Source of the DNA: Acetobacter sp. DsW_063
GTDB lineage: Bacteria > Pseudomonadota > Alphaproteobacteria > Acetobacterales > Acetobacteraceae
Length of the DNA: 64,000 nt
NCBI RefSeq assembly: GCF_002153745.1
Contig: NZ_JOPL01000020.1
Span: 1-64,000 of the forward strand
Direction: 5' to 3'
A program made the position numbers and the translations under genes. The first letter of the stretch is position 1, and each line of letters opens with the position of its first letter. The notes below the pieces were generated by a model. It had not been told where the DNA came from, ran no database searches, and saw nothing but the letters and a program-made list of their open reading frames with translations. This document shows positions 38,168 through 55,765 of the stretch, in pieces.

Positions 38168-39562
38168 ATGACCTACCGCGCCGCACTTGATGGAACCAGC
38201 TACGCGTTCACAGACCTGAAGCGATTGCTCGCCTGCGCCTCCCCGGCGCGTTCCGGCGATCAACTCGCCGGGTTGTCAGCAGCCGACGATGTGGAACGGG
38301 TCGCTGCGCGTTACGCACTGGCGGATGTTCCGTTGACCGACTTTCTTGAAAACCCGCTGGTTCCGTACGAAACCGACGACGTGACGCGGTTGATCGTGGA
38401 CACACACGACCGCGCAGCCTTCACGCCCGTCGCACATATGACGGTCGGCGCCTTTCGCGACTGGCTCCTCGGTTACGACGCTGACGGCCCGACCCTCGCC
38501 GCGCTGGCGCCCGGCCTTACACCGGAGATGGTGGCTGCAGTCAGCAAATTGATGCGCAATCAGGACCTGATCACTGTCGCTCGCAAGGTCGAGGTGAAAA
38601 CCGCCTTTCGCAATACGCAGGGGCTGCGCGGTCGGCTCGGCTCGCGGTTACAGCCCAATCATCCGACGGACGACGTGCGCGGCATCGCGGTATCGATGCT
38701 CGACGGGCTGCTGATGGGCGTCGGAGACGCGGTAATCGGCATCAACCCCGCCAGCGACAGCCTGCCGGACATCAAAGTCCTTCTCGACATGGTTGACGGC
38801 GTGCGGGAGCGCTACGACATGCCGGTGCAAAGCTGCGTGCTCACACATGTCACCAACACCATCCGGCTGATGGAGCGCGGCGCGCCGGTCGATCTGGTCT
38901 TCCAGTCGATCGCCGGATCACAGGCCGCGAATACGGGCTTCGGGGTCACGCTCGACATCCTGCGCGAAGCGGACGACGCAGCGCGCTCGCTAGCGCGGGG
39001 GACGGTAGGCGACAACGCGCTCTACTTCGAAACCGGACAGGGCGCCGCTCTGTCCGCCAACGCGCATCACGGCGTCGACCAGCAAACCATGGAGGCCCGC
39101 GCTTACGCCGTCGCCCGCGCATTCCGTCCGTTGCTGGTGAATACCGTCGTCGGATTCATCGGCCCGGAATATCTCTACGACGGCAAACAGGTCATCCGCG
39201 CCGGGCTTGAAGATCATTTCTGCGCCAAGCTGCTTGGCGTGCCGATGGGTTGCGACGTCTGTTACACCAATCACACGATGGCTGATCAGGACGACATGGA
39301 CGACCTGATGATGCTTCTGACGGTGGCGGGCGTGAATTTTCTGATCGCAGTTCCAGGCTCTGACGACGTGATGCTGGGGTATCAGAGCCTGTCGTACCAT
39401 GACATCCTGACGCTCCGCTCCACCTTTGACCGCCCGCCCGCGCCGGAATTCGAGGCGTGGCTGCGTCGTCAGGACATGCTGACGGCGGAAGGCAGGATGC
39501 GCGTCTCCGCGCCGCAGCAGCTTGGCCGCGTGCTCGGCCCGACGGGAGGCCTCGTGGCATGA
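38168..39562 (+). CDS. eutB: Ethanolamine ammonia-lyase large subunit
   Basis: The catalytic subunit of the adenosylcobalamin-dependent enzyme that splits ethanolamine to acetaldehyde and ammonia. The 464-residue protein from ATG 38168 is standard. Characteristic stretches are FREADDAAR-like ILREADDAARSLARGT, KVEVKTAFRNTQGLRGRLGSRLQPNHPTDD, GDAVIGINPASDS, SIAGSQAANTGFGVTL, FETGQGAALSANAHHGVDQQT, and CDVCYTNHTMADQDDMD. Its stop overlaps the eutC start. No microcompartment or eutA reactivase gene is nearby, so this is the soluble, two-gene form. Adenosylcobalamin is finished by cobU/cobT/cobS products encoded about 9-12 kb away. Confidence 0.96.
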   Translation: MTYRAALDGTSYAFTDLKRLLACASPARSGDQLAGLSAADDVERVAARYALADVPLTDFLENPLVPYETDDVTRLIVDTHDRAAFTPVAHMTVGAFRDWLLGYDADGPTLAALAPGLTPEMVAAVSKLMRNQDLITVARKVEVKTAFRNTQGLRGRLGSRLQPNHPTDDVRGIAVSMLDGLLMGVGDAVIGINPASDSLPDIKVLLDMVDGVRERYDMPVQSCVLTHVTNTIRLMERGAPVDLVFQSIAGSQAANTGFGVTLDILREADDAARSLARGTVGDNALYFETGQGAALSANAHHGVDQQTMEARAYAVARAFRPLLVNTVVGFIGPEYLYDGKQVIRAGLEDHFCAKLLGVPMGCDVCYTNHTMADQDDMDDLMMLLTVAGVNFLIAVPGSDDVMLGYQSLSYHDILTLRSTFDRPPAPEFEAWLRRQDMLTAEGRMRVSAPQQLGRVLGPTGGLVA

Positions 39563-40299
39563 ACGATCGGACGCCGGAGCCAAGGGGCGTCGATCCGTGG
39601 GCCGATCTGCGGGATCTGACCATCGCCCGAGTGGGTCTCGGTCGATGCGGAGACGCTATCCCGGCTCGCGACGTGCTCGCATTTCAACTCGCCCACGCAC
39701 AGGCGCGCAACGCCGTCGGCGCGACGCTCGACGCCGCAACCCTTGGACTGGACAACGTTGTCGAGGTTCACAGTCGCGCGACAGACAGAGCGACCTTTCT
39801 CCAGCGGCCAGATCTCGGACGCCAACTGGCCGAAAAGGACGCCCCTCGTCTGCCGCCCGGCGCGTATGACGTCGTATTTGTCCTCGCCGACGGTCTCTCC
39901 GCAACCGCCGTCACGCGACAAGCCCCTGGCGTTCTCGCCGCCTGCCTCAAAGCATTGCCCGGCTGGAGCGTCGCTCCCGTCGTCGTCGCGCATCAGGCGC
40001 GCGTCGCACTGGGCGACGAGATCGGCGAAAGGCTCGCAGCCCGTTTCGTCGTCATTATGATTGGCGAGAGACCGGGGCTGAGCGTGGCCGACAGCCTCAG
40101 CCTCTACATCACGGCGAACCCGCGTCCGGGACGCGCGGATTCGGAACGGAACTGCATCTCCAACATCCAACCCCGAGGCGGCCTTTCGCCGGAGTCGGCG
40201 GCTGACAAACTCGCATGGTTGCTGCGTGAAGCGGTCAGGATCGGCGGCACAGGCGTAAATCTTAAAGACGACCCGAGCGCAGCCCTACCCTCTGCGTGA
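39559..40299 (+). CDS. eutC: Ethanolamine ammonia-lyase small subunit
   Basis: Partner of EutB that helps hold adenosylcobalamin. From ATG 39559, overlapping the eutB stop by 4 nt, it gives 246 residues. Family stretches include LRDLTIARVGLGRCGDAIPARDVLAFQLAHAQARNAV, VHSRATDRATFLQRPDLGRQL, YDVVFVLADGLSATAV, MIGERPGLSVADSLSLYITANPRPGRADSERNCISNIQPRGG and SPESAADKLAWLLREAVRIGGTGVNLKDD. The cobalamin lower-face contact in the GxD-like DGLSA region is retained. EutBC thus form a coupled two-gene operon. Confidence 0.96.
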   Translation: MNDRTPEPRGVDPWADLRDLTIARVGLGRCGDAIPARDVLAFQLAHAQARNAVGATLDAATLGLDNVVEVHSRATDRATFLQRPDLGRQLAEKDAPRLPPGAYDVVFVLADGLSATAVTRQAPGVLAACLKALPGWSVAPVVVAHQARVALGDEIGERLAARFVVIMIGERPGLSVADSLSLYITANPRPGRADSERNCISNIQPRGGLSPESAADKLAWLLREAVRIGGTGVNLKDDPSAALPSA

Positions 40300-44150: not shown

Positions 44151-44752
44151 CAGGCTTTTCCCCCGCCACGTGCGGCAGGCGTCTTGCGCTCGCGCCCCGC
44201 CGCGCCCGCCTTGTCGCTTGCTTTGCCCGCACCGGCGCTTTCCTGCGCGGGAACGCGTCGACCGAACAGCTCCATCCGCAACGAGACCAGGTCAAAGCCC
44301 AGACGCTCGGCGATGCGGCGCATCAGCGCCTCATGCTCTTCGTCCTCGAATTCGATCACCTTGCCGGTGTCAATGTCGATCAGATGGTAATGGCGACCAT
44401 GCTCGCTCGCCTCGTACCTCGCCCGGCCGCCACCAAAATCGCGGCGCTCAAGGATGCCCTTCTCTTCAAGAAGGCGAACGGTGCGATACACCGTCGCCAC
44501 CGAAATACGGGAGTCCAGAGCAGTCGCCCGGCGGTAAAGCTCCTCGACGTCCGGATGATCCTCTGCGTCCGACAAAACGCGTGCGATCACGCGACGCTGG
44601 CCGGTCATCTTCAGGCCGCGCTCAACGCACAGCCTGGCGATTCGAGATTCCTGTACAGACGTTGCGCTCGTCCCGTGGACGGGCGCGTCTTCCGATACGA
44701 TCGAACGTGCGTTCACGGCGCTTATCCTATCGCCGACCTGTTTGCGATCCAT
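44150..44752 (-). CDS. fur: Fur-family metal-responsive regulator
   Basis: A metal-sensing repressor, 200 residues from ATG 44752; the frame is open further upstream but those residues are not family-like. The DNA-binding domain is ARLCVERGLKMTGQRRVIARVLSDAEDHPDVEELYRRATALDSRISVATVYRTVRLLEEKGIL (about 38-100), followed by the metal-site stretch EASEHGRHYHLIDIDTGKVIEFEDEEHEAL. The C-terminal CxxC pair of E. coli Fur is absent, as in many alphaproteobacterial Fur/Mur proteins that sense iron or manganese. The tail is Ala/Gly/Lys-rich. It overlaps the olsB start. Confidence 0.92.
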   Translation of the reverse strand: MDRKQVGDRISAVNARSIVSEDAPVHGTSATSVQESRIARLCVERGLKMTGQRRVIARVLSDAEDHPDVEELYRRATALDSRISVATVYRTVRLLEEKGILERRDFGGGRARYEASEHGRHYHLIDIDTGKVIEFEDEEHEALMRRIAERLGFDLVSLRMELFGRRVPAQESAGAGKASDKAGAAGRERKTPAARGGGKA

Positions 44753-44912
44753 GAGCAAGTCGCGTAGCCGACTCAACCGAAGTTTGTCCACTGGTACATT
44801 ACCAAGACGCGCGTCCGCGCCATCGTCCGCCGTTCCCGTTTCAGCCCGCCTTCGACGAGGGCGAGCCTCTCGACACCTTGCCGAACCGGCGCCTTGCGCC
44901 CATTTTCTCGGC

Positions 44913-45206
44913 ATGCAAGCGCCTGAAAACACGACCAAGCCGACCCCGGCGGCCACCGAAAATTATTCCCGAGTCGGTCACGTCGACCGAACCCTCGACA
45001 TCACGCGCGATACGTGTCCGATGACGTTTGTCCGTACGCGTCTCGCGCTCGACACCATGAGCTCCGGGCAGTTGCTGGCAGTGACGCTGCGCGGGGAAGA
45101 GCCGCTGCGAAACGTGTCCCGATCGGCGTCCGCTCTGGGCCACGCGATCATATCGCAGCGCGACGAGACCGACGGCTCAGGCACCCTGTTCATCCGCAAG
45201 GCCTGA
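44913..45206 (+). CDS. TusA-like sulfurtransferase-family protein
   Basis: A 97-residue protein: a disordered N-terminus (about 1-27) then the TusA/SirA fold, HVDRTLDITRDTCPMTFVRTRLALDTMSSGQLLAVTLRGEEPLRNVSRSASALGHAI, with Cys at the CP-M position (about residue 36) that in TusA carries the persulfide. TusA proteins usually have CPEP, here CPMT. A terminator-like hairpin lies downstream before the amine dehydrogenase genes. Sulfur relay or a role in cofactor or disulfide handling is possible but not shown. Confidence 0.8.
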   Translation: MQAPENTTKPTPAATENYSRVGHVDRTLDITRDTCPMTFVRTRLALDTMSSGQLLAVTLRGEEPLRNVSRSASALGHAIISQRDETDGSGTLFIRKA

Positions 45207-45343: not shown

Positions 45344-46531
45344 ATGACGGATTGGCTGAAGACCTGCGCCCGCCGCGCGATAGGACCGCTGGGGTTCGGT
45401 CTCGCCGCCGTGCTGTCACACACCCCGGCCATGGCTCAGGCTACTGGCGCCCACCCGGTGTTGCAGGCGGAACAGAACGACGTCGCCACGTTGCCGCCGA
45501 TCGGGCCGCACTGGTTCATCCCGTCCGCGACCGATTACACCTATCAGATTTTCGACATGGACAAGGGGCGGATGCTGGGCACCGTGCCCGCGAGCATGCT
45601 GGCGAACATCGCCATTTCCCCGGATCACAAGGTTATCTACGTCGCGGACACGATGTATTCGCGCGTCGATCATGGCACGCGACAGGATCTGCTTCAGGTC
45701 TACGACGCCAAAACGCTCGCCCTCACAAAAGAGATCGAGCTGCCGCCCCGCGCCCTCGCCGTCTATAAAAAGCAGGATCTGGACGTCAGCAGCGACGGCC
45801 GCTGGGCGTATATTTTCGACATGAGCCCCGCGACCGCCGTCACCCTGGTGGACCTTTCGAAGGGCTCTGTCGCGCGGACTGTGGACATCCCCGGCTGCGC
45901 TCTGATCTTCCCATGGAAATCCGGCGGTTTCTCCAGCCTCTGCGGCGACGGTTCTCTGACCAATGTCGGCGTGAACGATGGATCGCAGCCCACGATCACC
46001 CACACCAAGCCGTTCTTCGACGCGAATAACGACCCCGTCTTCGAACAGGGGCTGGTCGATCACAAATCCGGCAAGGCGCTGTTCATCAGCTACACAGGCA
46101 AGGTCTATAACGTCACGCTCGGCCAGAATCCGACGATCGACGCCACATGGTCCCTACAGAAAGCCGCTGGCCTGCCGCAGGCTGGAACCGGCGTACAGGA
46201 ACTGGCGTGGCGTCCGGGTGGCCAGCAGCCTTTCGCCTGGAACAGCGCTACCGGCCATCTGTTCGTTCTGATGCATTCCGGCAACCACTGGACGCACAAG
46301 ACTGCAGGCACGGAGTTGTGGGAGTTCGACCCGACGCAACAGGTCCTGCTCCGCAGAATCGACCTGCCTTCGCCCGCGAAAGGCGTCGCCGTCAGCCCCG
46401 ACAAGGCCTCCCTCGTCTACGTAACGGCAGACCACGACGGCCCCATCACCGTGATCGACGCAGCCACCGGACAGGTGAGCCGCACTGTCGAGGCGCGCGT
46501 CGGCGGGATGTCGATCGTGCCGGATATGTGA
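45344..46531 (+). CDS. mauB: Amine dehydrogenase heavy (beta-propeller) subunit
   Basis: The large subunit of a periplasmic, tryptophan-tryptophylquinone (TTQ) amine dehydrogenase, which oxidises primary amines to aldehyde and ammonia. From ATG 45344 (GGAGG 9 nt upstream) it has 395 residues: a signal peptide ending near AMAQA (residue 31) and a seven-bladed propeller with repeated SPDHKVIYVAD, SSDGRWAYIFD and SPDKASLVYVTADHDGP blades. GPHWFIPSATDYTYQIFD and DMDKGRMLG follow the family N-terminus. The light chain lies two genes downstream. Whether it is of methylamine (Mau) or aromatic-amine (Aau) type is unclear, so the symbol is provisional. Confidence 0.85.
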   Translation: MTDWLKTCARRAIGPLGFGLAAVLSHTPAMAQATGAHPVLQAEQNDVATLPPIGPHWFIPSATDYTYQIFDMDKGRMLGTVPASMLANIAISPDHKVIYVADTMYSRVDHGTRQDLLQVYDAKTLALTKEIELPPRALAVYKKQDLDVSSDGRWAYIFDMSPATAVTLVDLSKGSVARTVDIPGCALIFPWKSGGFSSLCGDGSLTNVGVNDGSQPTITHTKPFFDANNDPVFEQGLVDHKSGKALFISYTGKVYNVTLGQNPTIDATWSLQKAAGLPQAGTGVQELAWRPGGQQPFAWNSATGHLFVLMHSGNHWTHKTAGTELWEFDPTQQVLLRRIDLPSPAKGVAVSPDKASLVYVTADHDGPITVIDAATGQVSRTVEARVGGMSIVPDM

Positions 46532-46604
46532 GCGGAATGGCTCAATCGATCCACATTCCGGCGCACGCTTCGCAGTCGTCCAGCCCCGCCGGGCGGGCGT
46601 CCGC

Positions 46605-47210
46605 ATGATCACGCTCGCCGCAGCGCAGGCGCTGATATGGCTGCTCGTGGCTGCAGTGGCGGTCGTGATGGCCCTGCTGTTCCGATCCCTGCGCGGCTTT
46701 TATCGCGTCGTAGCCCCGGCCGGCGCCCTGATGGCGGGAGGCGGCCCTCCCCCCGGCGCGCAGGCGCCAACCTGGAGCGGCTCCGCCCTGGACGGAACGC
46801 CCGTCGTTCTCGGTGGCCCGCGATTCAGGATGCAACTCCTGCTCTTCGTCGGCGAGGGATGCCCGATCTCGCGCAAACTGGCGCCGATCGCACGCGATTT
46901 CGCCCGGCGGGAAGCGCTGGATCTGGTGTTCATGGGCGACGACAGCGCTGAAGCGCAGGAGCGTCTGGTCGCGTCGTTCGGCCTGCCGCGCGGGCAGATG
47001 GTCAACGATGACCGCTATGGCCGCATGATTGGCGTCGACAAGCTGCCGTTCGCGGCGCTGCTCGGCACGGAAGGCGCGATCGTGGCGAAAGGCCTGGTCA
47101 ACAGCCGCGAGCATCTGGAAAGCCTGCTGACAGCGCACGAGACCGGTTTCGCGACGGTCCAGTCTTATCTCGCAGCGCGGTCGCACGCCGGTCACGCCCA
47201 TGCGGCATGA
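46605..47210 (+). CDS. mauD: MauD-like thioredoxin-fold protein with incomplete redox motif
   Basis: A 201-residue protein with one N-terminal helix (about residues 8-26) and a thioredoxin-like fold facing the periplasm. In the mau and aau clusters MauD helps form the many disulfides of the light chain. Family parts: APTWSGSALDGTPVVLGGPRF, MQLLLFVGEGCPISRKLAPIARDFA, LDLVFMGDDSAEAQERLVASFGLPRGQMVNDDRYGRMIGVDKLPFAALLGTEG. At the redox site the motif is C86-P-I-S89, whereas I would expect a second cysteine. It lies between heavy and light chain genes. No mauE is present in the 73-nt gap upstream, where one is usual. Confidence 0.8.
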   Translation: MITLAAAQALIWLLVAAVAVVMALLFRSLRGFYRVVAPAGALMAGGGPPPGAQAPTWSGSALDGTPVVLGGPRFRMQLLLFVGEGCPISRKLAPIARDFARREALDLVFMGDDSAEAQERLVASFGLPRGQMVNDDRYGRMIGVDKLPFAALLGTEGAIVAKGLVNSREHLESLLTAHETGFATVQSYLAARSHAGHAHAA

Positions 47211-47310
47211 TCTGACGCGCAGCGGTGTCGCACATACATCGCCGGTCCTGACGGGCGCCTTCGGGGCGCCCGCAGAACTGAAGTTCGAACTGGTCAGGGG
47301 AGAGTAAAGC

Positions 47311-47862
47311 ATGTCCGTGTCGCTGTTCGACACACTGAGCGAGAAATTCGCCCGTTACCTTGCCGTCAACTCTTCCCGTCGCAGCGTCCTCGGCAAGGTG
47401 AGCACGGCCATGGCCGTCGCCCCCGCCTTCCCGCTGTTGCCCGTCACGCGTGCAGAAGCGTCGGCGCCGAACCCGCCGCCGACTCTGACGGATTTCGAGC
47501 GTAACGCGCAGTCCAAAGATCCGGATCGCTGCGATTACTGGCGGCACTGCGCCATCGACGGCGTGCTGTGCGGCTGCTGCGGAGGCGGCGTGCACACCTG
47601 CCCTCCGGGCACGGAACCCTCCCCGGTTTCATGGATCGGCACCTGCCGCAACCCGGAGGACGGCCGTTCCTACGTCATCGCCTACCGTGATTGCTGCGGT
47701 CGCAATATGTGCAACGTGCCGAAGGAGTGCGACTGCAATACGTCCGACCGTGAAATGCCGATCTACCGCCCGCAGACGAGCAACGACATCATCTGGTGCT
47801 TTGGCACCAAATCCACCACGTATCACTGCTCAACGGCGGCGATCATCGGTCAGGCCAGCTAG
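47311..47862 (+). CDS. mauA: Amine dehydrogenase light (TTQ) subunit
   Basis: The catalytic subunit that carries the TTQ cofactor. A twin-arginine signal SSRRSVLGK (about 21-29) directs Tat export of the folded precursor. The mature domain shows DYWRHCAIDGVLCGCCGGG, CPPGTEPSPVSWIGTCRNPEDGRSYVIAYRDCCG and SNDIIWCFG; W108 and W162 match the two tryptophans that are crosslinked to TTQ (57 and 108 in methylamine dehydrogenase), and D83 and D127 match the conserved Asp residues. It has 14 cysteines, the number I recall for aromatic-amine dehydrogenase. Parts of the sequence resemble the methylamine form instead, so the substrate class is open. Confidence 0.93.
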   Translation: MSVSLFDTLSEKFARYLAVNSSRRSVLGKVSTAMAVAPAFPLLPVTRAEASAPNPPPTLTDFERNAQSKDPDRCDYWRHCAIDGVLCGCCGGGVHTCPPGTEPSPVSWIGTCRNPEDGRSYVIAYRDCCGRNMCNVPKECDCNTSDREMPIYRPQTSNDIIWCFGTKSTTYHCSTAAIIGQAS

Positions 47863-47870
47863 GCTCCATC

Positions 47871-48563
47871 ATGTTCGGTCCCCGCTTCGCGTCGCGCCTG
47901 CGGGCACCGTTTATGGAGCGTGCGCTTCCTGTCCGGCGACACACCCGGCGCACAACCAGCTCTGAAACGACTGCGGTGTCCCGCGCGCCCGGACGCTGGC
48001 TCGCCGCCCTGTTCGTTGGGACGACGCTGCTCGGTGGAAGCGCCGCTGCACTTGCGGGCGACAATTCCGTGAACGTGGCGCCGGTTCCCATGGCCTCCGT
48101 CCCCGTTCTGCCAGGCGTTCAGGGGAACTATCTGACCGGTTGCGGCGGCTGCCACGGCGTGCAGGGACATTCCGGCCGCAGCGTGGTCCCGGATCTTGCC
48201 GGACATGTCGGTTATTTCCTCTGCACTCCCGCCGGGCGCGAGTATCTGATCCGCCTGCCCAACGTCGCCTTTGCCAACCTGTCGTCAGCGGATCTGGCGA
48301 CGATGATGAATTTCGTCGTGTTCAGGCTGGGCGCAGGCAGCGCCCCGCAGGGCGCCCAACCCTATACCGAGGAGGAAGTCGCCAGATTGCGCGCCCATCC
48401 TTTCCGAGAGGCCAGCCTGCATATGTATCGCGACGAAGTGGTGCGCGGCGTCGCAAAGGCCTGTCCGCGCGCGGCCGATCTGCACGATTACGATCTCAAT
48501 CTGAACAGCCGGGAGGTCGATAACGGCGTCTCGCGCCCGTTCAGCGCGCCGGGGCCGTCCTGA
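47871..48563 (+). CDS. Monoheme cytochrome c of the amine dehydrogenase cluster
   Basis: A 230-residue protein from ATG 47871 (9 nt after the light chain stop; ATG 47913 is an alternative) with a signal anchor (about 42-62) and one heme site C91-G-G-C-H95. A plausible axial Met lies in DLATMMNFVVF (about residue 145). It probably accepts electrons from the TTQ enzyme, as the cytochrome or amicyanin does in related clusters, though this is inferred from position. It contains a single CxxCH, so it is not the di-heme MauG maturase. It ends 3 nt before the convergent cobU stop. Confidence 0.82.
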   Translation: MFGPRFASRLRAPFMERALPVRRHTRRTTSSETTAVSRAPGRWLAALFVGTTLLGGSAAALAGDNSVNVAPVPMASVPVLPGVQGNYLTGCGGCHGVQGHSGRSVVPDLAGHVGYFLCTPAGREYLIRLPNVAFANLSSADLATMMNFVVFRLGAGSAPQGAQPYTEEEVARLRAHPFREASLHMYRDEVVRGVAKACPRAADLHDYDLNLNSREVDNGVSRPFSAPGPS

Positions 48564-48566
48564 CTC

Positions 48567-49136
48567 CTATTTGAGACGCAGCGGAAGCCCCGCAGCCAAA
48601 AACACGACCTGTCCCGCGTCACGCGCGATGCGCTGATGCAGCAATCCCGCTTCATCACGGAAACACCTGCCGAGCGGAGTTTCCGGCGTCAGCCCCAACC
48701 CTACCTCGTTCCCGACCAGAACCGTCGGCGCAGCACGCCGGACCAGCGCCTCCATCAACCCTTCCGACGCCGCCGCGATATCGCGATCATCTAAAATGAG
48801 GTTCGTCAGCCAAAGCGTCAGGCAGTCCACCAGCACCGGAGCGGTTCCCGCCCGGTCCAGAACACCGAGAAGATCGAAACGCTCTTCGACGGTCCGCCAT
48901 CCGTCTTTCCGATCCGCGCGATGTTTGTCGATCCGCCGCGCCATCTCGTCATCTCCGGCATGCGCGGTCGCTACGTAAACCCACGGCGCGGGCATTGCGG
49001 TGATCAGGGCCTCCGCGTACCGGCTCTTGCCCGAGCGCGCGCCGCCAAGAACGAGAACCGTTCCGTCCAGCCCCGTCAAAACGGGCGTCAGAACCACCTC
49101 AGGCGTCATCAGAACCGCTTGCTCCCCACACGCCAC
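48567..49136 (-). CDS. cobU: Bifunctional adenosylcobinamide kinase / guanylyltransferase
   Basis: It phosphorylates adenosylcobinamide and converts it to adenosylcobinamide-GDP in the late nucleotide-loop stage of B12 synthesis (also called CobP). The protein shows VLVLGGARSGKSRYAEAL (P-loop), WVYVATAHAGDDEMARRIDKHRADR with the guanylylation His, PVLVDCLTLWLTNLI and VLVGNEVGLGLTPETPLGRCFRDEAGLLHQRIA. ATG 49109 is an alternative start. It is convergent with the cytochrome gene, and the beta-lactamase gene lies 83 nt upstream on the same strand. Confidence 0.95.
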   Translation of the reverse strand: MACGEQAVLMTPEVVLTPVLTGLDGTVLVLGGARSGKSRYAEALITAMPAPWVYVATAHAGDDEMARRIDKHRADRKDGWRTVEERFDLLGVLDRAGTAPVLVDCLTLWLTNLILDDRDIAAASEGLMEALVRRAAPTVLVGNEVGLGLTPETPLGRCFRDEAGLLHQRIARDAGQVVFLAAGLPLRLK

Positions 49137-49219
49137 GCGACTTTTCTCGAACGGACGCCGCGCGTAATTTTCCTACTCCAAGGCGCCGCGACATCTTGCC
49201 ACGCAACCCGCCCGGAGCC

Positions 49220-50077
49220 TCAACCCAGCGTCTTTGCGACAAGCGCGCCGACGCCAGAGAAAGCCGCAGTCAGCTGCGCGTCGGTCGGCGCTCCGCCCCT
49301 CGTATAAACCGCCACAATGATCGGGGCGTCCGGTTTCGGCCACAGCACCGCGATGTCTCCAGCCGCATCCTTCGCGTTGTTGCCGGTCTTGTCGCCCACG
49401 CGCCACGTCTTGGGAAGACCGGCGCGCAGGCGGTTTCCGCCAGTCTGGCACCCGACCAGCCACCCGGTCAGCAACGCCCGCGACGAGTCCGACAGCACGT
49501 CCCCCAGCACCACGCGTTGCAGGACCTTCGCCATCGCCTCCGGGGTCGTCGTGTCGCGAACGCCGCCGAGAGGCGTCCGGTTGAGATACGGTTCCGGATC
49601 GTCGAGGCGCGTCTGCGTATCGCCGATCGAACGCCAGAACGCCGTCAGGGCCGCCGGGCCGCCAACACTTGAGAGAAGCAGCGTGGCGCAGGTGTTGTCG
49701 CTCTGCTCCACAGCGGCCCGACACATCTCAGCGACCGTCATCGACCCGCGCGCCAACTTCTCCTTGGCCACAGGCGCATACCAGTCCGGCACATCCGCTT
49801 TCGTATAGGCGACATTTCGATCGAGCTTCTCCTGCCCTCGCTCGACGCGGCGCAACACACAGGCGGCGAGCGAAGCCTTGAACGTGCTGCACATTACGAA
49901 ACGTTCGTCGGCCCGCCACAGCAACTTGCCGCCAGTCGCAAGATTTTCGGCATAAACACCTATGTGGCCGCCGCTCTCGCGCTCGTACGTCCCGATCGCT
50001 TGTGGCGGGGGCGGCAGCGCGTAAGCAGGAGAGGCCAGCAATACCGAGCCATACTGAAGCAAGCGCCGACGTCGCAT
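49220..50077 (-). CDS. bla: Class A beta-lactamase
   Basis: A 285-residue exported serine beta-lactamase that hydrolyses beta-lactams. The signal peptide is short (RRRRLLQYGSVLLASPAYA). Class A motifs are all present: S64-T-F-K67 preceded by Cys63, S126-D-N128, E162-P-Y-L-N166 and K230-T-G232. Other cysteines lie at 119, 130 and 210, and no Cys follows KTG, so the C69-C238 disulfide of KPC/NMC-A enzymes is not formed in the usual way. The N-N after KTG is unusual. It lies directly upstream of cobU on the same strand and divergent from cobT, between genes that are often contiguous. Spectrum cannot be inferred. Confidence 0.92.
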   Translation of the reverse strand: MRRRRLLQYGSVLLASPAYALPPPPQAIGTYERESGGHIGVYAENLATGGKLLWRADERFVMCSTFKASLAACVLRRVERGQEKLDRNVAYTKADVPDWYAPVAKEKLARGSMTVAEMCRAAVEQSDNTCATLLLSSVGGPAALTAFWRSIGDTQTRLDDPEPYLNRTPLGGVRDTTTPEAMAKVLQRVVLGDVLSDSSRALLTGWLVGCQTGGNRLRAGLPKTWRVGDKTGNNAKDAAGDIAVLWPKPDAPIIVAVYTRGGAPTDAQLTAAFSGVGALVAKTLG

Positions 50078-50340
50078 GTGTTCCGCCTGAGTTGAGGGAT
50101 TAAGTGTGTTGCACTTGATGATGTAGGTTCCGGGCTTTTTTGTGTCGCATTCGGAACGGGGTGAGCATTCTTGCCTAGAGGGGGCTGGAGCGGGTTTCGT
50201 TCAAAAAACTCGTTTGAACGGGTAAATATCATCGATAAAATAATAACTTAGAGTATGTTTTCCTTGACGCCATCTTTGCAGTTGACTCAGCGCAACCTGA
50301 CGTCCGCAAGCATCTTCATCCCTGTATCACAGGCGAGCGA

Positions 50341-51426
50341 ATGCCCCACTCTGGCTTGCCGCCCACGCCCGAAGGCCGCACATACCGGGACATGTCAGAA
50401 TCTTTCCTTACCATCGCCGCCCTCCGCGACGCCGCCACCTCGCTTTGGCGCGGCGACGCGAACGCCGAGGCCCAGGCCGCCGCCCGCGACCGGATACTGA
50501 CCAAGCCGCCCGGCAGCCTCGGACGATTGGAGCGCATCGCCCAATGGCACGCCCGCTGGAGGCGTGGACGGCCCATGGTGCTGGAGCGCATCGACGTCCT
50601 CGTATTCGCAGGCAATCACGGGGTCGTGGCGCAGGGCGTCTCCGCATGGCCATCCGCCGTCACCGCGCAGATGGTGGAGAATTTCCGCAACGGCGGCGCG
50701 GCGATCAACCAGTTGTCGCGCGTCGCAGGCGCAACGCTTCGTGTCATCGAAGTCGCCGATCTGGCGCCGACGCGGGACTTCACAGCCGGTCCGGCGATGG
50801 AAGAGCGCGCGTTCCTCGCCGCTGTGAATCTCGGTTACGCCTCGGTGTCGCCGGAAGCCGACCTGCTCTGTCTGGGAGAGATGGGCATCGGCAACACGAC
50901 TGTCGCCGCTGCTCTGTCCGCCGGCCTGTTTGGCGGAAGCGGGGCGGATTGGGCCGGACGTGGCGCCGGGATCGACGACGAAGGGTTGGCCCGCAAGGTG
51001 CGCGCCATAGACGCCGCGCTTTCACTGCATGGTGGTCTCGCACCCGATCCTCTGGAAGCCGCACGTAGGCTGGGAGGTTACGAACTCGCCGCAATCATGG
51101 GCGCAACGCTCGCCGCCCGACGCCACGGCGTGCCCGTTCTGCTGGACGGGTTCGTCTGCACGGCCTCCGCCGCCCCTCTGGCCCGGTTGAGCTGCGACGG
51201 CCTCGACCACGCATTGGTGTCCCATCGCTCGGCGGAGGCTGGACATGCACGGCTCGCCGCCGCCCTTGGAATGGAGCCTCTGCTCGATCTTGGCCTGCGC
51301 CTCGGCGAAGCGTCAGGGGCCGCGCTCGCGGCGCCGCTCGTACGGGCGGCGATCGCCTGCCACACCGGGATGGCGACTTTCGATTCCGCGGGCGTCGCCA
51401 CAACCAGCGACGCCCGCGCGTCGTGA
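50341..51426 (+). CDS. cobT: Nicotinate-nucleotide--dimethylbenzimidazole phosphoribosyltransferase
   Basis: It makes alpha-ribazole phosphate, the lower-ligand precursor of cobalamin. The 361-residue protein (ATG 50392, MSESFL..., is an alternative) shows LTKPPGSLGRLERIAQWHA, VFAGNHGVVAQGVSAWPSAVTAQMVENFRNGGAAINQLSR, LLCLGEMGIGNTTVAAAL, GYELAAIMGATLAARRHGVPVLLDGFVCTASA and SHRSAEAGHARLA, matching CobT. The stop overlaps the cobS GTG (GTGA). No cobalamin riboswitch is visible in the 263-nt upstream region. Confidence 0.96.
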   Translation: MPHSGLPPTPEGRTYRDMSESFLTIAALRDAATSLWRGDANAEAQAAARDRILTKPPGSLGRLERIAQWHARWRRGRPMVLERIDVLVFAGNHGVVAQGVSAWPSAVTAQMVENFRNGGAAINQLSRVAGATLRVIEVADLAPTRDFTAGPAMEERAFLAAVNLGYASVSPEADLLCLGEMGIGNTTVAAALSAGLFGGSGADWAGRGAGIDDEGLARKVRAIDAALSLHGGLAPDPLEAARRLGGYELAAIMGATLAARRHGVPVLLDGFVCTASAAPLARLSCDGLDHALVSHRSAEAGHARLAAALGMEPLLDLGLRLGEASGAALAAPLVRAAIACHTGMATFDSAGVATTSDARAS

Positions 51427-52184
51427 CGCAAGCCCTCCGCGCCGACCTCGCCTGCGGGCTGGGGCTTCTGACCCGCCTACCAACAGGATGGCTAGGGGTG
51501 AACGGCGCGGCCATGTCGATGGCGCGCTCCTCCTGGACATGGCCACTCATCGGCGGGCTGATCGGGCTGATCGGTGGCGGCGCGATGGAGACGCTGCGCG
51601 CTCTTGGGATACCAGCGCCGGTTGCCGCCCTGTGCGCGCTGTCTGTCCAGACGTTGCTGACTGGCGGACTGCATGAGGACGGGCTGGCCGATGTCGCAGA
51701 CGGCTTTGGGGGCGGGCGGGATCGGGAACGGAAACTCGCCATCATGCGCGACAGCCGTATCGGCAGTTACGGCGCGCTGGCGTTGGTCCTGACAACAATG
51801 CTGCGCGCCGGCGCTATGGCCGCGATTCCCGTCAACATGACGCTGGCGACGCTGGTCCTTGCATCGGCGGCTTCGCGCGGCGCGCTGCCGCTCGTCATGA
51901 CCCTGCTGCAGCCCGCGCGCGAGGATGGGTTGGGGCGGTCTGTTGGCAAACCGCCGGTATTCGCAGTGGTTTTTGGGTTGGTTGCGCCGCTCACGTTCTT
52001 ACTAAGTACGCCCAACCCCTCCCACGGGCTTGTAAGCTGGGCCATATCTATTGCCGCAACCGGAGCAGTCACAATGCAGGCACGGCGACAGATTGGTGGA
52101 TACACTGGCGACACGCTGGGCGCATCTGTAATAGTTTCAGAGAGCATGACTTTAGTTTTAGAAAGCGCACAACTTTTTCGATAA
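51423..52184 (+). CDS. cobS: Adenosylcobinamide-GDP ribazoletransferase
   Basis: The membrane enzyme that joins adenosylcobinamide-GDP with alpha-ribazole (or its phosphate) to complete cobalamin. It starts at a GTG at 51423 inside the cobT stop. The 253-residue protein shows FLTRLPT-like LLTRLPTGWL, TGGLHEDGLADVADGFGGGRDRERKLAIMRDSRIGSYGALAL with the Asp-rich motif, and RQIGGYTGDTLGA. About six membrane helices. The sequence becomes visibly AT-rich right after its stop, where two unrecognised genes follow. Confidence 0.95.
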   Translation: MTQALRADLACGLGLLTRLPTGWLGVNGAAMSMARSSWTWPLIGGLIGLIGGGAMETLRALGIPAPVAALCALSVQTLLTGGLHEDGLADVADGFGGGRDRERKLAIMRDSRIGSYGALALVLTTMLRAGAMAAIPVNMTLATLVLASAASRGALPLVMTLLQPAREDGLGRSVGKPPVFAVVFGLVAPLTFLLSTPNPSHGLVSWAISIAATGAVTMQARRQIGGYTGDTLGASVIVSESMTLVLESAQLFR

Positions 52185-52914: not shown

Positions 52915-54117
52915 TTACTCCGCCAAAGCATCCATGACCGCATGTGCAAACGCGTTCGAATCTACAGGATCTTCCATGATCGGCTTGGAGCGCGCCCGCA
53001 ATTCCACAATCATCGTCCTCCGCTTCGGATTCAGATAGATACGTTGCCCGAAAATACCTCGCGCGGAAAAGGCGCCATCCGAAAATCCACCATCACGGTC
53101 CGGCGTCGGCCACCACATGTAGCCGTATTCCAGCCGATCACCGCCCGAAAGCGTCCTCGGGCGACCCGCCTCCTCAAACCATCCGTCCGGCAGAAGGGAT
53201 TTTCCGTCGATGCGCCCGCCATCCAGGACGAACAGCCCAAAGCGCGCGAAGTCACGAAGGGTCGCGTTCAGACCCATACCCGCCGTCTCCGTCCCATCAG
53301 GACTGTCGAGCCACCAATGCGCGTCATGCTCCATCCCAAGCGGTTTCCACAGTTTTTCCGAAAGATACTCCGATAGCGGCCGCCCCAGCGCTGCACGCAG
53401 CAGATAGCCCATGACACAAGTCTCACCCGTGCTGTAATTCCAGACCGCACCGGGCTCCGCCACGCGCGACAGGCTCGTCATCAAATTCATGATCGCGCCG
53501 GGGCGACCAGCGGATTGCAGCGCCAGCATCCTGCGGCGATCAGACGTCGGGTCGGTGTAGGTCTCGTTCCACCCAACGCCTGATGTCATCTGCAACAGAT
53601 TGCGGACAGACACGCCCTGATAAGCGCCGCCCCTCAACTCCGGCAGGTATTGCTCAAGCCTGTCGTCCAGACTGCCGATCAGGCCATCCCTGATCGCCAT
53701 GCCGATCAGAGTGGTGCTGACAGACTTGGCGACGGACATGGACGGCCAGAGCGTGTCCGGCCCAGCCCCGAGGTCATAATGCTCCAGAACGACCCGACCT
53801 TCATGCGCGATCAGCATTCCCGCAACCCGGTTTAGGGAGAGGTAGTCATAAAAATCGTTTACCTTGCCTGCAGTCTCCACTTTCAGGCCGAGCAGATTTC
53901 GCAACGCGCCGTCATCGTAAACCAGCGGCCGCGGCTCGCCATGCTTGACAACGCGGCATGGCAGAATGTCGCGCAATGCCGAGAACACCTCGACCTGCCG
54001 GGCGGGGGGCAGCGCGCCGTCATAAACGCGCGCCAGAAGCTCCGCTTTTCCAGCGTCGCGTTGCTCGATGACGTTCGTCCACGCTGAAGGAACTGTTTTC
54101 ATGGTAACAACATCCAT
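52915..54117 (-). CDS. Serine hydrolase, class C beta-lactamase-like fold
   Basis: A 400-residue cytoplasmic-looking esterase/amidase-type enzyme. The catalytic S-x-x-K is in PSMSVAKSVST (about residues 126-136, Ser-Val-Ala-Lys), the Tyr motif is YSTGE (about 229), and GIFGQRIYLNPKRRTMIVELR replaces the KTG-like region. No signal peptide is seen, so antibiotic hydrolysis is unlikely. Relatives include 6-aminohexanoate-dimer hydrolases and esterases. ATG 54102 is another possible start. It is flanked by AT-rich genes on both sides but has normal composition itself. Confidence 0.85.
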   Translation of the reverse strand: MDVVTMKTVPSAWTNVIEQRDAGKAELLARVYDGALPPARQVEVFSALRDILPCRVVKHGEPRPLVYDDGALRNLLGLKVETAGKVNDFYDYLSLNRVAGMLIAHEGRVVLEHYDLGAGPDTLWPSMSVAKSVSTTLIGMAIRDGLIGSLDDRLEQYLPELRGGAYQGVSVRNLLQMTSGVGWNETYTDPTSDRRRMLALQSAGRPGAIMNLMTSLSRVAEPGAVWNYSTGETCVMGYLLRAALGRPLSEYLSEKLWKPLGMEHDAHWWLDSPDGTETAGMGLNATLRDFARFGLFVLDGGRIDGKSLLPDGWFEEAGRPRTLSGGDRLEYGYMWWPTPDRDGGFSDGAFSARGIFGQRIYLNPKRRTMIVELRARSKPIMEDPVDSNAFAHAVMDALAE

Positions 54118-55143: not shown

Positions 55144-55593
55144 TCACTTCGGTTTGACGGCGATGCCCATGACCTCATAGTGAGCGCCGCCCAGCAGGCT
55201 TCCCGCCCCGATGAAAGCGCGCGCAGGCATCGGCCCCTTGAAATAGGTCCGGTAAACGGCGTTGAAGGCCGCAAAATTCTTGAGGTCAGAGGCGAATATC
55301 TGCACCCAGACGAGGTCGTCCATCGTCAGACCAGCCTTCTCGACCGTCTTTTTGATGTTATCCAGCACGATTTTGGCGCCGGCGGTCGCGTCGAGGGCCG
55401 GTTTGCCCGTGGCCGGGTCATGATCAGTGGTGCCGGAGATGTAGAGCGTGTCGCCAGCCATAACTGCGCTGCTGAACGGCGGAGCGGTCGTGACACTCGC
55501 TGGCACTCCCTCAGGAGCGAAATGCTCGACTGTAGCGGCGTGCGAAGCCGTGGAAACCAGCATTGCAAGGGCGACGGGAGCGACGTAGCGCAT
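55144..55593 (-). CDS. Exported RidA/YjgF-family protein
   Basis: A 149-residue protein from ATG 55593, preceded by GAGG. Residues 1-19 form a cleavable signal (MRYVAPVALAML... ending ASHAA). The rest is the RidA fold: PPFSSAVMAGDTLYISGTTDHDPATGKPALDATAGAKIVLDNIKKTVEKAGLTMDDLVWVQIFASDLKNFAAFNAVYRTYFKGPMPARAFIGAGSL. In cytoplasmic RidA an Arg (near R105 in E. coli) binds the imine substrate, and here PARAFIG keeps an Arg. Export of this fold is unusual. Confidence 0.82.
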   Translation of the reverse strand: MRYVAPVALAMLVSTASHAATVEHFAPEGVPASVTTAPPFSSAVMAGDTLYISGTTDHDPATGKPALDATAGAKIVLDNIKKTVEKAGLTMDDLVWVQIFASDLKNFAAFNAVYRTYFKGPMPARAFIGAGSLLGGAHYEVMGIAVKPK

Positions 55594-55765
55594 GATGACC
55601 TCGTTTGTGAGAAGCTTCATTCAATGGAGCAACGTCTAGGAAATTATTGCGATTCCATTGTGAAAACAACTCACGCGCCACGCATGGGGAATCAGGGACT
55701 CGACGCGTCGACGATCATATATCCGGCGTCGCCATCAAACGGCCGTCTGACCACCCGCCTGACCG

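What the first reader, a model, noticed from the sequence alone, without database searches (positions are those of the whole stretch)
45344..48563. TTQ amine dehydrogenase cluster with no mauE or mauG
The gene order is heavy chain, MauD-like, light chain, monoheme cytochrome. In mau and aau clusters as I recall them, mauE, a membrane protein needed to form the light chain disulfides, lies between heavy chain and mauD. Here only a 73-nt gap is present there. The cytochrome has one heme site, so it is not di-heme MauG. Either maturation genes lie elsewhere, or this lineage matures TTQ by another route.
Basis: partly seen in the sequence, partly recalled or inferred. Interest (0 to 1): 0.7.

Follow-up and report, generated by a model that had tools for sequence, protein, structure and literature searches.

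The report
Amine dehydrogenase cluster with halved chaperone
This vinegar-bacterium gene cluster makes a quinone-containing amine-oxidising enzyme whose folding genes are divided between two places in the genome, with two half-degraded copies of one folding helper seemingly sharing one job, and beside it lies an unusual haem protein that might replace the known cofactor-making enzyme.

Summary
In detail: window 45344-48563 encodes heavy chain, MauD, light chain and a one-haem cytochrome, with 73 nt where mauE is expected and no diheme gene. But the cell has mauE: a second cluster, B-E-D-A-cytochrome, lies on another contig, and 22 of 22 named relatives have mauE. The window's MauD is odd: its CxxC site is CPIS. 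CxxS MauDs form one well-supported clade, seen only in Acetobacteraceae; in a family sample 14 of 14 genomes with one also have a CxxC MauD. The two have lost opposite parts of ancestral MauD: CxxS lost the juxtamembrane motif and resolving Cys, CxxC lost the C-terminal motif. I read this as complementary degeneration: one MauE, and MauD split into an electron-relay and a substrate-side half. Lack of mauG is ordinary for aau-type clusters; some complete genomes with one have no CCP/MauG-family gene at all. The adjacent cytochrome is a Thermus c552 relative without the distal-methionine loop. In a Pseudomonadota sample it is present in 12 of 12 genomes with a light chain and full-length in 0 of 385 others, and in the clusters examined it never stands with mauG: a good, untested candidate for the missing TTQ-forming factor.

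The parts
45344..46531 (+). amine dehydrogenase heavy chain (aauB/mauB-like)
   Evidence: PF06433 E 1.1e-50; solved MADH/AADH heavy chains, best E 7e-41
46532..46604 (.). 73-nt gap where mauE lies in canonical clusters
   Evidence: canonical loci have an E ORF here
46605..47210 (+). MauD paralogue with CPIS (CxxS) active site and N-terminal helix; keeps the C-terminal GLVNSREHLESL..ETG..VQSYL motif
   Evidence: TIGR02661 E 2.4e-37; motif survey and tree; AlphaFold pLDDT 92.4, thioredoxin fold, ResA-like top matches
47311..47862 (+). amine dehydrogenase light chain, TTQ-bearing, 14 core Cys as in AADH
   Evidence: PF02975 E 8.5e-53; AADH light chain 2agl_D aligned; Cys count
47871..48563 (+). 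one-haem cytochrome, Thermus c552-like without the distal-Met loop
   Evidence: one CGGCH; profile hit to 1dt1/1c52 E 8e-18 skipping residues 49-70 of 1c52; VIA Z 10.8 to 1dt1

Best explanation
The window holds one of two TTQ amine dehydrogenase clusters of an Acetobacter. It is aau-type (AADH-like). It has lost its own mauE, and its MauD has lost the resolving cysteine and the juxtamembrane motif. The single MauE and its partner, a CxxC MauD, are encoded in the second cluster and act in trans. That partner has lost the C-terminal motif which the window MauD keeps. Proposed mechanism: MauE with the CxxC MauD carries thiol/disulfide redox equivalents at the membrane; the CxxS MauD binds the cysteine-rich light chain, trapping or shuffling its disulfides through its one active-site cysteine; the CxxC MauD resolves it. 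Both halves are needed for either light chain. TTQ is then formed without MauG; the adjacent cytochrome with a seemingly open distal haem side is the best candidate. Shown: gene content, motif split, clades, co-occurrence. Inferred: the biochemical roles and the mutual dependence.
For: Second cluster B-E-D(CPIC)-A with cytochromes on G000 contig C155. mauE over the family cut-off in 22 of 22 named genomes, best E in each 1.8e-17 or lower. CxxS MauD is one clade of 33 rows, support 100/99, in 100% of 200 bootstrap trees, Acetobacteraceae only. In 249 Acetobacteraceae genomes (G000 included) 17 have MauD at E 1e-12: 14 have both kinds, 3 have CxxC only, none CxxS only. mauE lies directly upstream of the CxxC MauD in 95 of 97 rows and of the CxxS MauD in 0 of 45 (rows include repeat fetches of the same genes; 5 MADH-type rows whose motif my pattern did not read also have mauE upstream). 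Of 66 columns conserved in canonical MauD, 11 were lost only in CxxS, 21 only in the acetic-acid-bacterial CxxC, 1 in both, 33 in neither (Fisher one-sided p = 0.039; 0.042 at the other threshold tried); N-terminal 15 columns: CxxS lost 7, CxxC lost 1; C-terminal 26: CxxS lost 1, CxxC lost 13. The only MauD found in G211, sister to the CxxC clade, keeps both sets (10/10 and 17/18). Purifying selection on the window genes.
Against: No biochemistry. Complementarity p is only 0.039, the columns are not independent, and the two column sets were chosen from the same data. The two MauDs are not sisters in the tree, so they may stem from two acquired clusters rather than one duplication. Two sampled genomes (G056, G130) also carry a third, canonical MauD, so dependence need not be absolute. 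Acidomonas and A. oeni CxxC MauDs keep only 8/10 and 7/10 of the N-terminal set, Ameyamaea's keeps 5/18 of the C-terminal set. G000 is rated 69% complete, so the pattern rests on its relatives too.
Confidence: 0.6

Rival explanations
1. Trans-complementation only: the window cluster borrows MauE and the CxxC MauD from the second cluster, and the CxxS MauD is a drifting leftover with no essential role.
For: mauE in 22 of 22 named genomes and a CxxC MauD in 14 of 14 sampled genomes with a CxxS MauD; some clusters lack any local MauD (for example L040, L045, L049, L068).
Against: CxxS MauD is held by 14 of the 17 sampled Acetobacteraceae genomes with MauD, its first Cys, Pro148 and C-terminal motif are conserved, dN/dS is about 0.07 against A. 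nitrogenifigens, and the CxxC partner has lost the C-terminal motif.
Confidence: 0.25
2. Unrelated periplasmic thiol systems (DsbA/DsbC/DsbD, VKOR) have taken over light chain folding and mauE is dispensable.
For: No mauE in the window cluster. Dsb and VKOR genes were not searched.
Against: mauE kept in 22 of 22 named genomes and directly upstream of a CxxC MauD in 95 of 97 rows.
Confidence: 0.08
3. TTQ is made by a MauG-family protein encoded elsewhere (two BthA-like diheme proteins and one triheme peroxidase-like protein in G000).
For: L006 and L007 resemble BthA and MauG and align a Tyr with MauG Tyr294 (that Tyr294 is a haem ligand is recalled); BthA-like genes in 13 of 17 Acetobacteraceae genomes with MauD versus 29 of 232 without, a difference that shared ancestry may explain.
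Against: 7 of 32 genomes with a verified light chain have no PF03150 gene at E 0.01, among them single-contig G330 and G439 rated 100% complete, while the control MauG genes on two plasmids were found; G166 and G229 lack the BthA type at E 1e-40.
Confidence: 0.25
4. The distal-Met-less cytochrome is only the electron acceptor of the enzyme, not a maturation factor.
For: It is next to the light chain; other quinoprotein dehydrogenases pair with cytochromes (recalled).
Against: The loop that holds the distal ligand in c552 is missing in the 103 domains aligned and no other Met is conserved; other aau-type clusters also encode a second cytochrome that keeps such a loop; the five MauG-bearing clusters lack it.
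Confidence: 0.45

Closest known systems
aau cluster (aromatic amine dehydrogenase; e.g. plasmid LT969519.1 of P. aeruginosa, L095)
   Same: Heavy chain, MauD, light chain, cytochrome; no mauF, mauJ, mauG, mauM/N; the window light chain has 14 core Cys like the solved AADH chain
   Different: mauE missing locally; MauD CxxS; only one cytochrome; mauE and CxxC MauD supplied by a second cluster. L095's own light chain has 10 core Cys
mau cluster (methylamine dehydrogenase; P. denitrificans plasmid 1, L094)
   Same: Homologous heavy and light chains and MauD
   Different: The window cluster has no mauE, mauF, mauJ, mauG, NapG/H-like genes or amicyanin; it has a c552-like cytochrome instead
Methylacidiphilum infernorum mauBEDA-moxG operon (PMC2474590, passages seen)
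   Same: A cytochrome gene after mauA, and a MauG homologue elsewhere in the genome
   Different: Has mauE in place; whether its cytochrome lacks the Met loop was not tested
Thermus thermophilus cytochrome c552 (1c52, 1dt1)
   Same: Best sequence-profile and fold match of the window cytochrome
   Different: c552 residues 49-70, which hold the distal Met69 (recalled), are missing
BthA of Burkholderia (6nx0; PMC6405878, passages seen)
   Same: Two BthA-like genes exist elsewhere in G000
   Different: Not in the cluster; [quoted passage not shown]

Membership tests
TTQ amine dehydrogenase | Light chain of PF02975 with both TTQ tryptophans and the Cys framework | tested here: met
TTQ amine dehydrogenase | Heavy chain PF06433 in the same cluster | tested here: met
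TTQ amine dehydrogenase | TTQ actually formed, activity on primary amines | not testable with these tools
   needs protein
aau-type cluster | c-type cytochrome after light chain, no mauF/J/G/M/N | tested here: met
   MauG-like genes absent from the near-identical loci L012 and L013
aau-type cluster | mauE between heavy chain and mauD | tested here: not met
   73-nt gap; mauE in trans on contig C155
mau (MADH, MauG) cluster | diheme mauG in the cluster | tested here: not met
MauD | NCBIfam TIGR02661 above cut-off | tested here: not met
   128.3 vs 188.6 bits; the CxxC paralogue of the same genome also misses it, 122.7
MauD | CxxC active site | tested here: not met
   CPIS
MauD | thioredoxin fold with long N-terminal helix and the invariant Pro148 (taken to be the cis-Pro) | tested here: met
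   groups inside the MauD tree
MauG / CCP_MauG (for the window cytochrome) | two CXXCH haem sites, PF03150 | tested here: not met
   one CXXCH; only a sub-threshold PF00034 match
Thermus c552-like cytochrome | c552 sequence profile and fold | tested here: met
Thermus c552-like cytochrome | distal Met loop (c552 49-70) | tested here: not met
   that Met69 is the ligand is recalled

The most novel reading that the evidence does not exclude
MauG is the exception: most TTQ amine dehydrogenases (aau-type) are matured by a dedicated one-haem cytochrome that arose from a c552-like electron carrier by deleting the loop with the distal methionine, so opening the haem to peroxide or oxygen. In acetic acid bacteria, in addition, the MauD disulfide chaperone has been split into two complementary half-proteins, a relay half working with MauE and a substrate half with a single active-site cysteine.
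Probability: 0.3. Interest if true: 0.85.

Novelty: new variant of a known kind. Interest (0 to 1): 0.62.

Why it matters
How TTQ is made in aromatic amine dehydrogenases, which lack mauG in their clusters, is to my knowledge open. The data here point to one named gene, adjacent to the light chain and in the sample confined to light-chain genomes, that can be knocked out. The MauD pair offers a natural dissection of MauD into a MauE-facing and a substrate-facing part, which makes the obscure roles of MauE and MauD directly testable.

Tried and rejected
TIGR03791 (TTQ_mauG) as a test for MauG was dropped: P. denitrificans MauG itself scores 96.8 against a cut-off of 443.85, and it gave no hit at 1e-30 on that plasmid. 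I used PF03150 instead, which finds the P. denitrificans and Methylobacterium DM1 MauG genes, and a direct comparison with P. denitrificans MauG for the loci.

Tyr43 of the cytochrome as a haem ligand: dropped as a firm claim, because several wider relatives have Phe there. Against an open distal side: 6 of 103 domains contain a Met-Pro pair somewhere, and some wider relatives have a Met near the shortened loop (VPGM, APGIM, GGVM). So the missing ligand is inferred from lack of conservation, not shown. One wider relative (L163/L171, G506) also lacks the otherwise invariant Arg41 and Pro48.

BthA-like proteins as the general TTQ maturase: not supported as universal.

G051 was left out of the count of genomes without PF03150, because its contig ends inside mauD and no light chain was seen. 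The genomes were picked by hand, not drawn at random.

Pseudogene or decaying cluster: rejected. Clustering of ORFs within 7.5 kb of the light chain: the same-strand families found in more than half of the loci were the B, E, D, A and cytochrome ones; the rest were opposite-strand ORF clusters or families in at most 26 loci, which I did not annotate one by one.

Paper searches showed in their listings no paper on the aau maturation route, on a CxxS MauD or on this cytochrome; only the top rows of each were seen, in an open-licence library. Papers in subscription journals, such as the 2001 Alcaligenes aau cluster paper, are recalled, not seen. One search (at least four of MauD, MauE, disulfide, thioredoxin, light chain, amine dehydrogenase, as whole words) returned zero papers.

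The CxxS and CxxC MauDs of Komagataeibacter sp. FXV3 and K. swingsii were not read.
Full report
What is there. Heavy chain 45344-46531 and light chain 47311-47862 belong to the TTQ amine dehydrogenase families. The light chain keeps both TTQ tryptophan contexts and has 14 core cysteines, as in the solved aromatic amine dehydrogenase chain. MauD (46605-47210) and a one-haem cytochrome (47871-48563) complete it. Heavy chain and MauD are 73 nt apart. The light chain is 99% identical in Acetobacter sacchari and A. nitrogenifigens, so the host is taken to be an Acetobacter close to these. Against A. nitrogenifigens dN/dS runs from about 0.01 (light chain) to 0.15 (cytochrome), computed from the dN and dS.

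mauE is in the genome. The genome (G000, rated 68.9% complete) has a PF07291 gene at C155:42811-43182, E 2.8e-22. It sits in a second cluster: heavy chain, mauE, MauD with CPIC, light chain, then two cytochrome ORFs. Two light chains and two MauDs were found in G000. The same second cluster is in A. sacchari and A. nitrogenifigens. mauE was above the curated cut-off in 22 of 22 named genomes. In Gluconacetobacter the order is B - D(CPIS) - A - cytochrome - E - D(CPVC); in Acidomonas and A. oeni it is E - D(CPIC or CPVC) - B - D(CPIS) - A - cytochrome. So mauE and a second MauD are placed differently, often close by.

The MauD here is a CxxS protein. Over 131 MauD rows (repeat fetches included) the first active-site Cys and the following Pro are invariant, and the fourth position is Cys (88) or Ser (43) only. 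The tree of 108 distinct MauDs puts all 33 CxxS rows in one clade (100/99; all 200 bootstrap trees), all from Acetobacteraceae, placed next to CxxC MauDs of sphingomonads and relatives with modest support (84/88). The acetic-acid-bacterial CxxC MauDs form another clade of 33 (100/100), sister to the only MauD found in G211. In a sample of 249 Acetobacteraceae genomes, G000 included, 17 have MauD at E 1e-12: 14 have a CxxS and a CxxC MauD, 3 have CxxC only, none has CxxS only. In a Pseudomonadota sample the MauDs next to the light chains of the 11 genomes other than G000 all read CxxC. mauE stands directly upstream of the CxxC MauD in 95 of 97 rows and of the CxxS MauD in 0 of 45; of the two exceptions one locus starts at MauD (L072) and the other (L151) has a weak mauE match just upstream, below my cut-off.

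Complementary loss. Taking columns at least 75% conserved in 42 canonical MauDs (66 columns), CxxS MauDs have lost, among others, A24, A26, Q28, G30, H33, R35 (the LARQxGxLHER stretch after the membrane helix), the resolving Cys89 and Lys90; they keep, among others, A41, L42, E103, K146, G163, L164, E169, H170, S173, E179, G181, Q186 and Y188. The acetic-acid-bacterial CxxC MauDs show the reverse. Counts at threshold 0.35: lost in both 1, CxxS only 11, CxxC only 21, neither 33; one-sided Fisher p = 0.039 (0.042 at threshold 0.5). Single canonical MauDs keep both sets: G211 10/10 and 17/18, G094 10/10 and 15/18; that of G051 is cut by the contig end. The split is not perfect: Acidomonas and A. 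oeni CxxC MauDs have 8/10 and 7/10 of the first set and 4/18 of the second, Ameyamaea's 8/10 and 5/18. My reading: ancestral MauD had a MauE-facing half and a substrate-facing half; in acetic acid bacteria two co-resident MauDs each lost one half and now need each other. That the N-terminal motif faces MauE is inferred from its co-retention with mauE and the Cys pair; that the C-terminal motif faces the light chain is a guess. CxxS thioredoxin-fold proteins with isomerase or holding activity are known from elsewhere (recalled; listing only).

mauG. A MauG-like ORF was found in 0 of 78 loci and in 0 of 10 aau-type plasmid clusters (L095-L098, L144, L145, L147, L149-L151), but in 5 of 5 mau-type ones (L094, L142, L143, L146, L148). 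The mau-type clusters also carry mauF, mauJ and NapG/H-like genes and lack the cytochrome described next; the ten aau-type ones have it. L147 and L151 carry no annotation in the collection and were read by my own scans only; L149 has only part of a light chain. G000 has three PF03150 genes elsewhere: a triheme peroxidase-like protein and two BthA-like diheme proteins. PF03150 was absent at E 0.01 in 7 of 32 genomes with a verified light chain (G000, 20 of the 21 genomes, 11): G004, G211, G271, G273 and G330, G439, G485; G330 and G439 are single contigs rated 100% complete, G004 is a MAG. So TTQ can apparently be made without MauG, and lack of mauG is not a feature of this lineage.

The cytochrome. 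A profile of 39 sequences finds Thermus c552 as the best solved match (1dt1, E 7.8e-18), aligning residues 8-48 and 71-128 of 1c52 and skipping 49-70. The AlphaFold model (pLDDT 89.6) also has c552 as top match (Foldseek 1c52 E 3.8e-3; VIA 1dt1 Z 10.8, 109 residues, rmsd 2.5). c552's distal ligand Met69 (recalled) lies in the skipped part. Among 103 distinct domains the CXXCH is kept in 102, Arg41, Pro48 and Asn65 in all, Tyr43 in 101, and no Met column exceeds 68 of 103; the stretch where the loop would sit is short in all 103. A neighbouring cytochrome in other aau-type clusters keeps a Met-containing loop at this place. The distal-Met-less cytochrome starts within 1000 nt of the light chain in 75 of 78 loci; the three without (L040, L045, L049) are extra Komagataeibacter clusters whose genomes have it in another cluster. 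In 397 Pseudomonadota genomes, 12 have a light chain and the same 12 have this cytochrome, within about 0.8 kb of all 15 light chains; of the 385 others none has a full-length match and two have a partial C-terminal one, E 5e-9 and 7e-9 (at most ten candidates per genome were scored). A haem with no conserved sixth ligand, tied to TTQ light chains and standing where MauG is missing, is what a MauG substitute would look like. It could still be an unusual electron acceptor.

Novelty. The absence of mauG in aau clusters, and a cytochrome after the light chain, are known (2001 aau cluster paper recalled, not seen; a mauBEDA-moxG operon is described in PMC2474590, passages seen). The listings of my paper searches showed nothing on a CxxS MauD, on split MauD, or on a distal-Met-less cytochrome as a TTQ factor (open-licence library, top rows only). 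That MauG takes part in making TTQ in methylamine dehydrogenase is stated in PMC7876137 (passages seen). I rate it a new variant of a known kind, with a bolder reading that stays open.

Noticed in passing
window 38168-40299: Ethanolamine ammonia-lyase genes eutB and eutC (PF06751, PF05985) lie 5 kb upstream of the amine dehydrogenase cluster, and cobalamin genes cobU, cobT-like and cobS lie within 48567-52184 just downstream: an amine and B12 neighbourhood.
   Followed up: partly
window 55144-55620: RidA/L-PSP family protein (PF01042) with what by eye looks like a signal peptide, so possibly periplasmic; it might deal with imines from amine oxidation.
   Followed up: no
window 49220-50077 and 52915-54117: Two beta-lactamase-family genes (PF13354 and PF00144) within 6 kb of the cluster.
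   Followed up: no
window 44742-45206: TusA-like sulfurtransferase (PF01206) directly upstream of the heavy chain; not checked for conservation.
   Followed up: no
L001 181-774 (minus strand), G000 C155: The second light chain of the same genome has 12 core cysteines with other spacing than the window's 14, so the two enzymes probably differ in disulfide pattern and perhaps substrate.
   Followed up: partly
L070 3354-3899: Light chain of an Acetobacteraceae MAG with a 15th cysteine next to the first TTQ tryptophan (PSPICWIG).
   Followed up: no
L040, L045, L049: Komagataeibacter species carry an extra heavy chain-light chain pair with neither MauD, MauE nor the cytochrome in the fetched stretch.
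   Followed up: no
L006 1330-2691, L007 1135-2625 (G000 contigs C147, C94): Two BthA-like diheme proteins with a Tyr aligned to MauG Tyr294; BthA-like genes occur in 13 of 17 Acetobacteraceae genomes with MauD versus 29 of 232 without.
   Followed up: partly
L094 7880-9043: NCBIfam TIGR03791, named the TTQ MauG equivalog, scores P. denitrificans MauG at only 96.8 of a 443.85 cut-off, so the model misses the best-studied MauG.
   Followed up: yes
L034: A MAG titled Klebsiella pneumoniae carries an aau-type cluster whose MauD and MauE group with an uncultured gammaproteobacterium; probably a misnamed bin.
   Followed up: no
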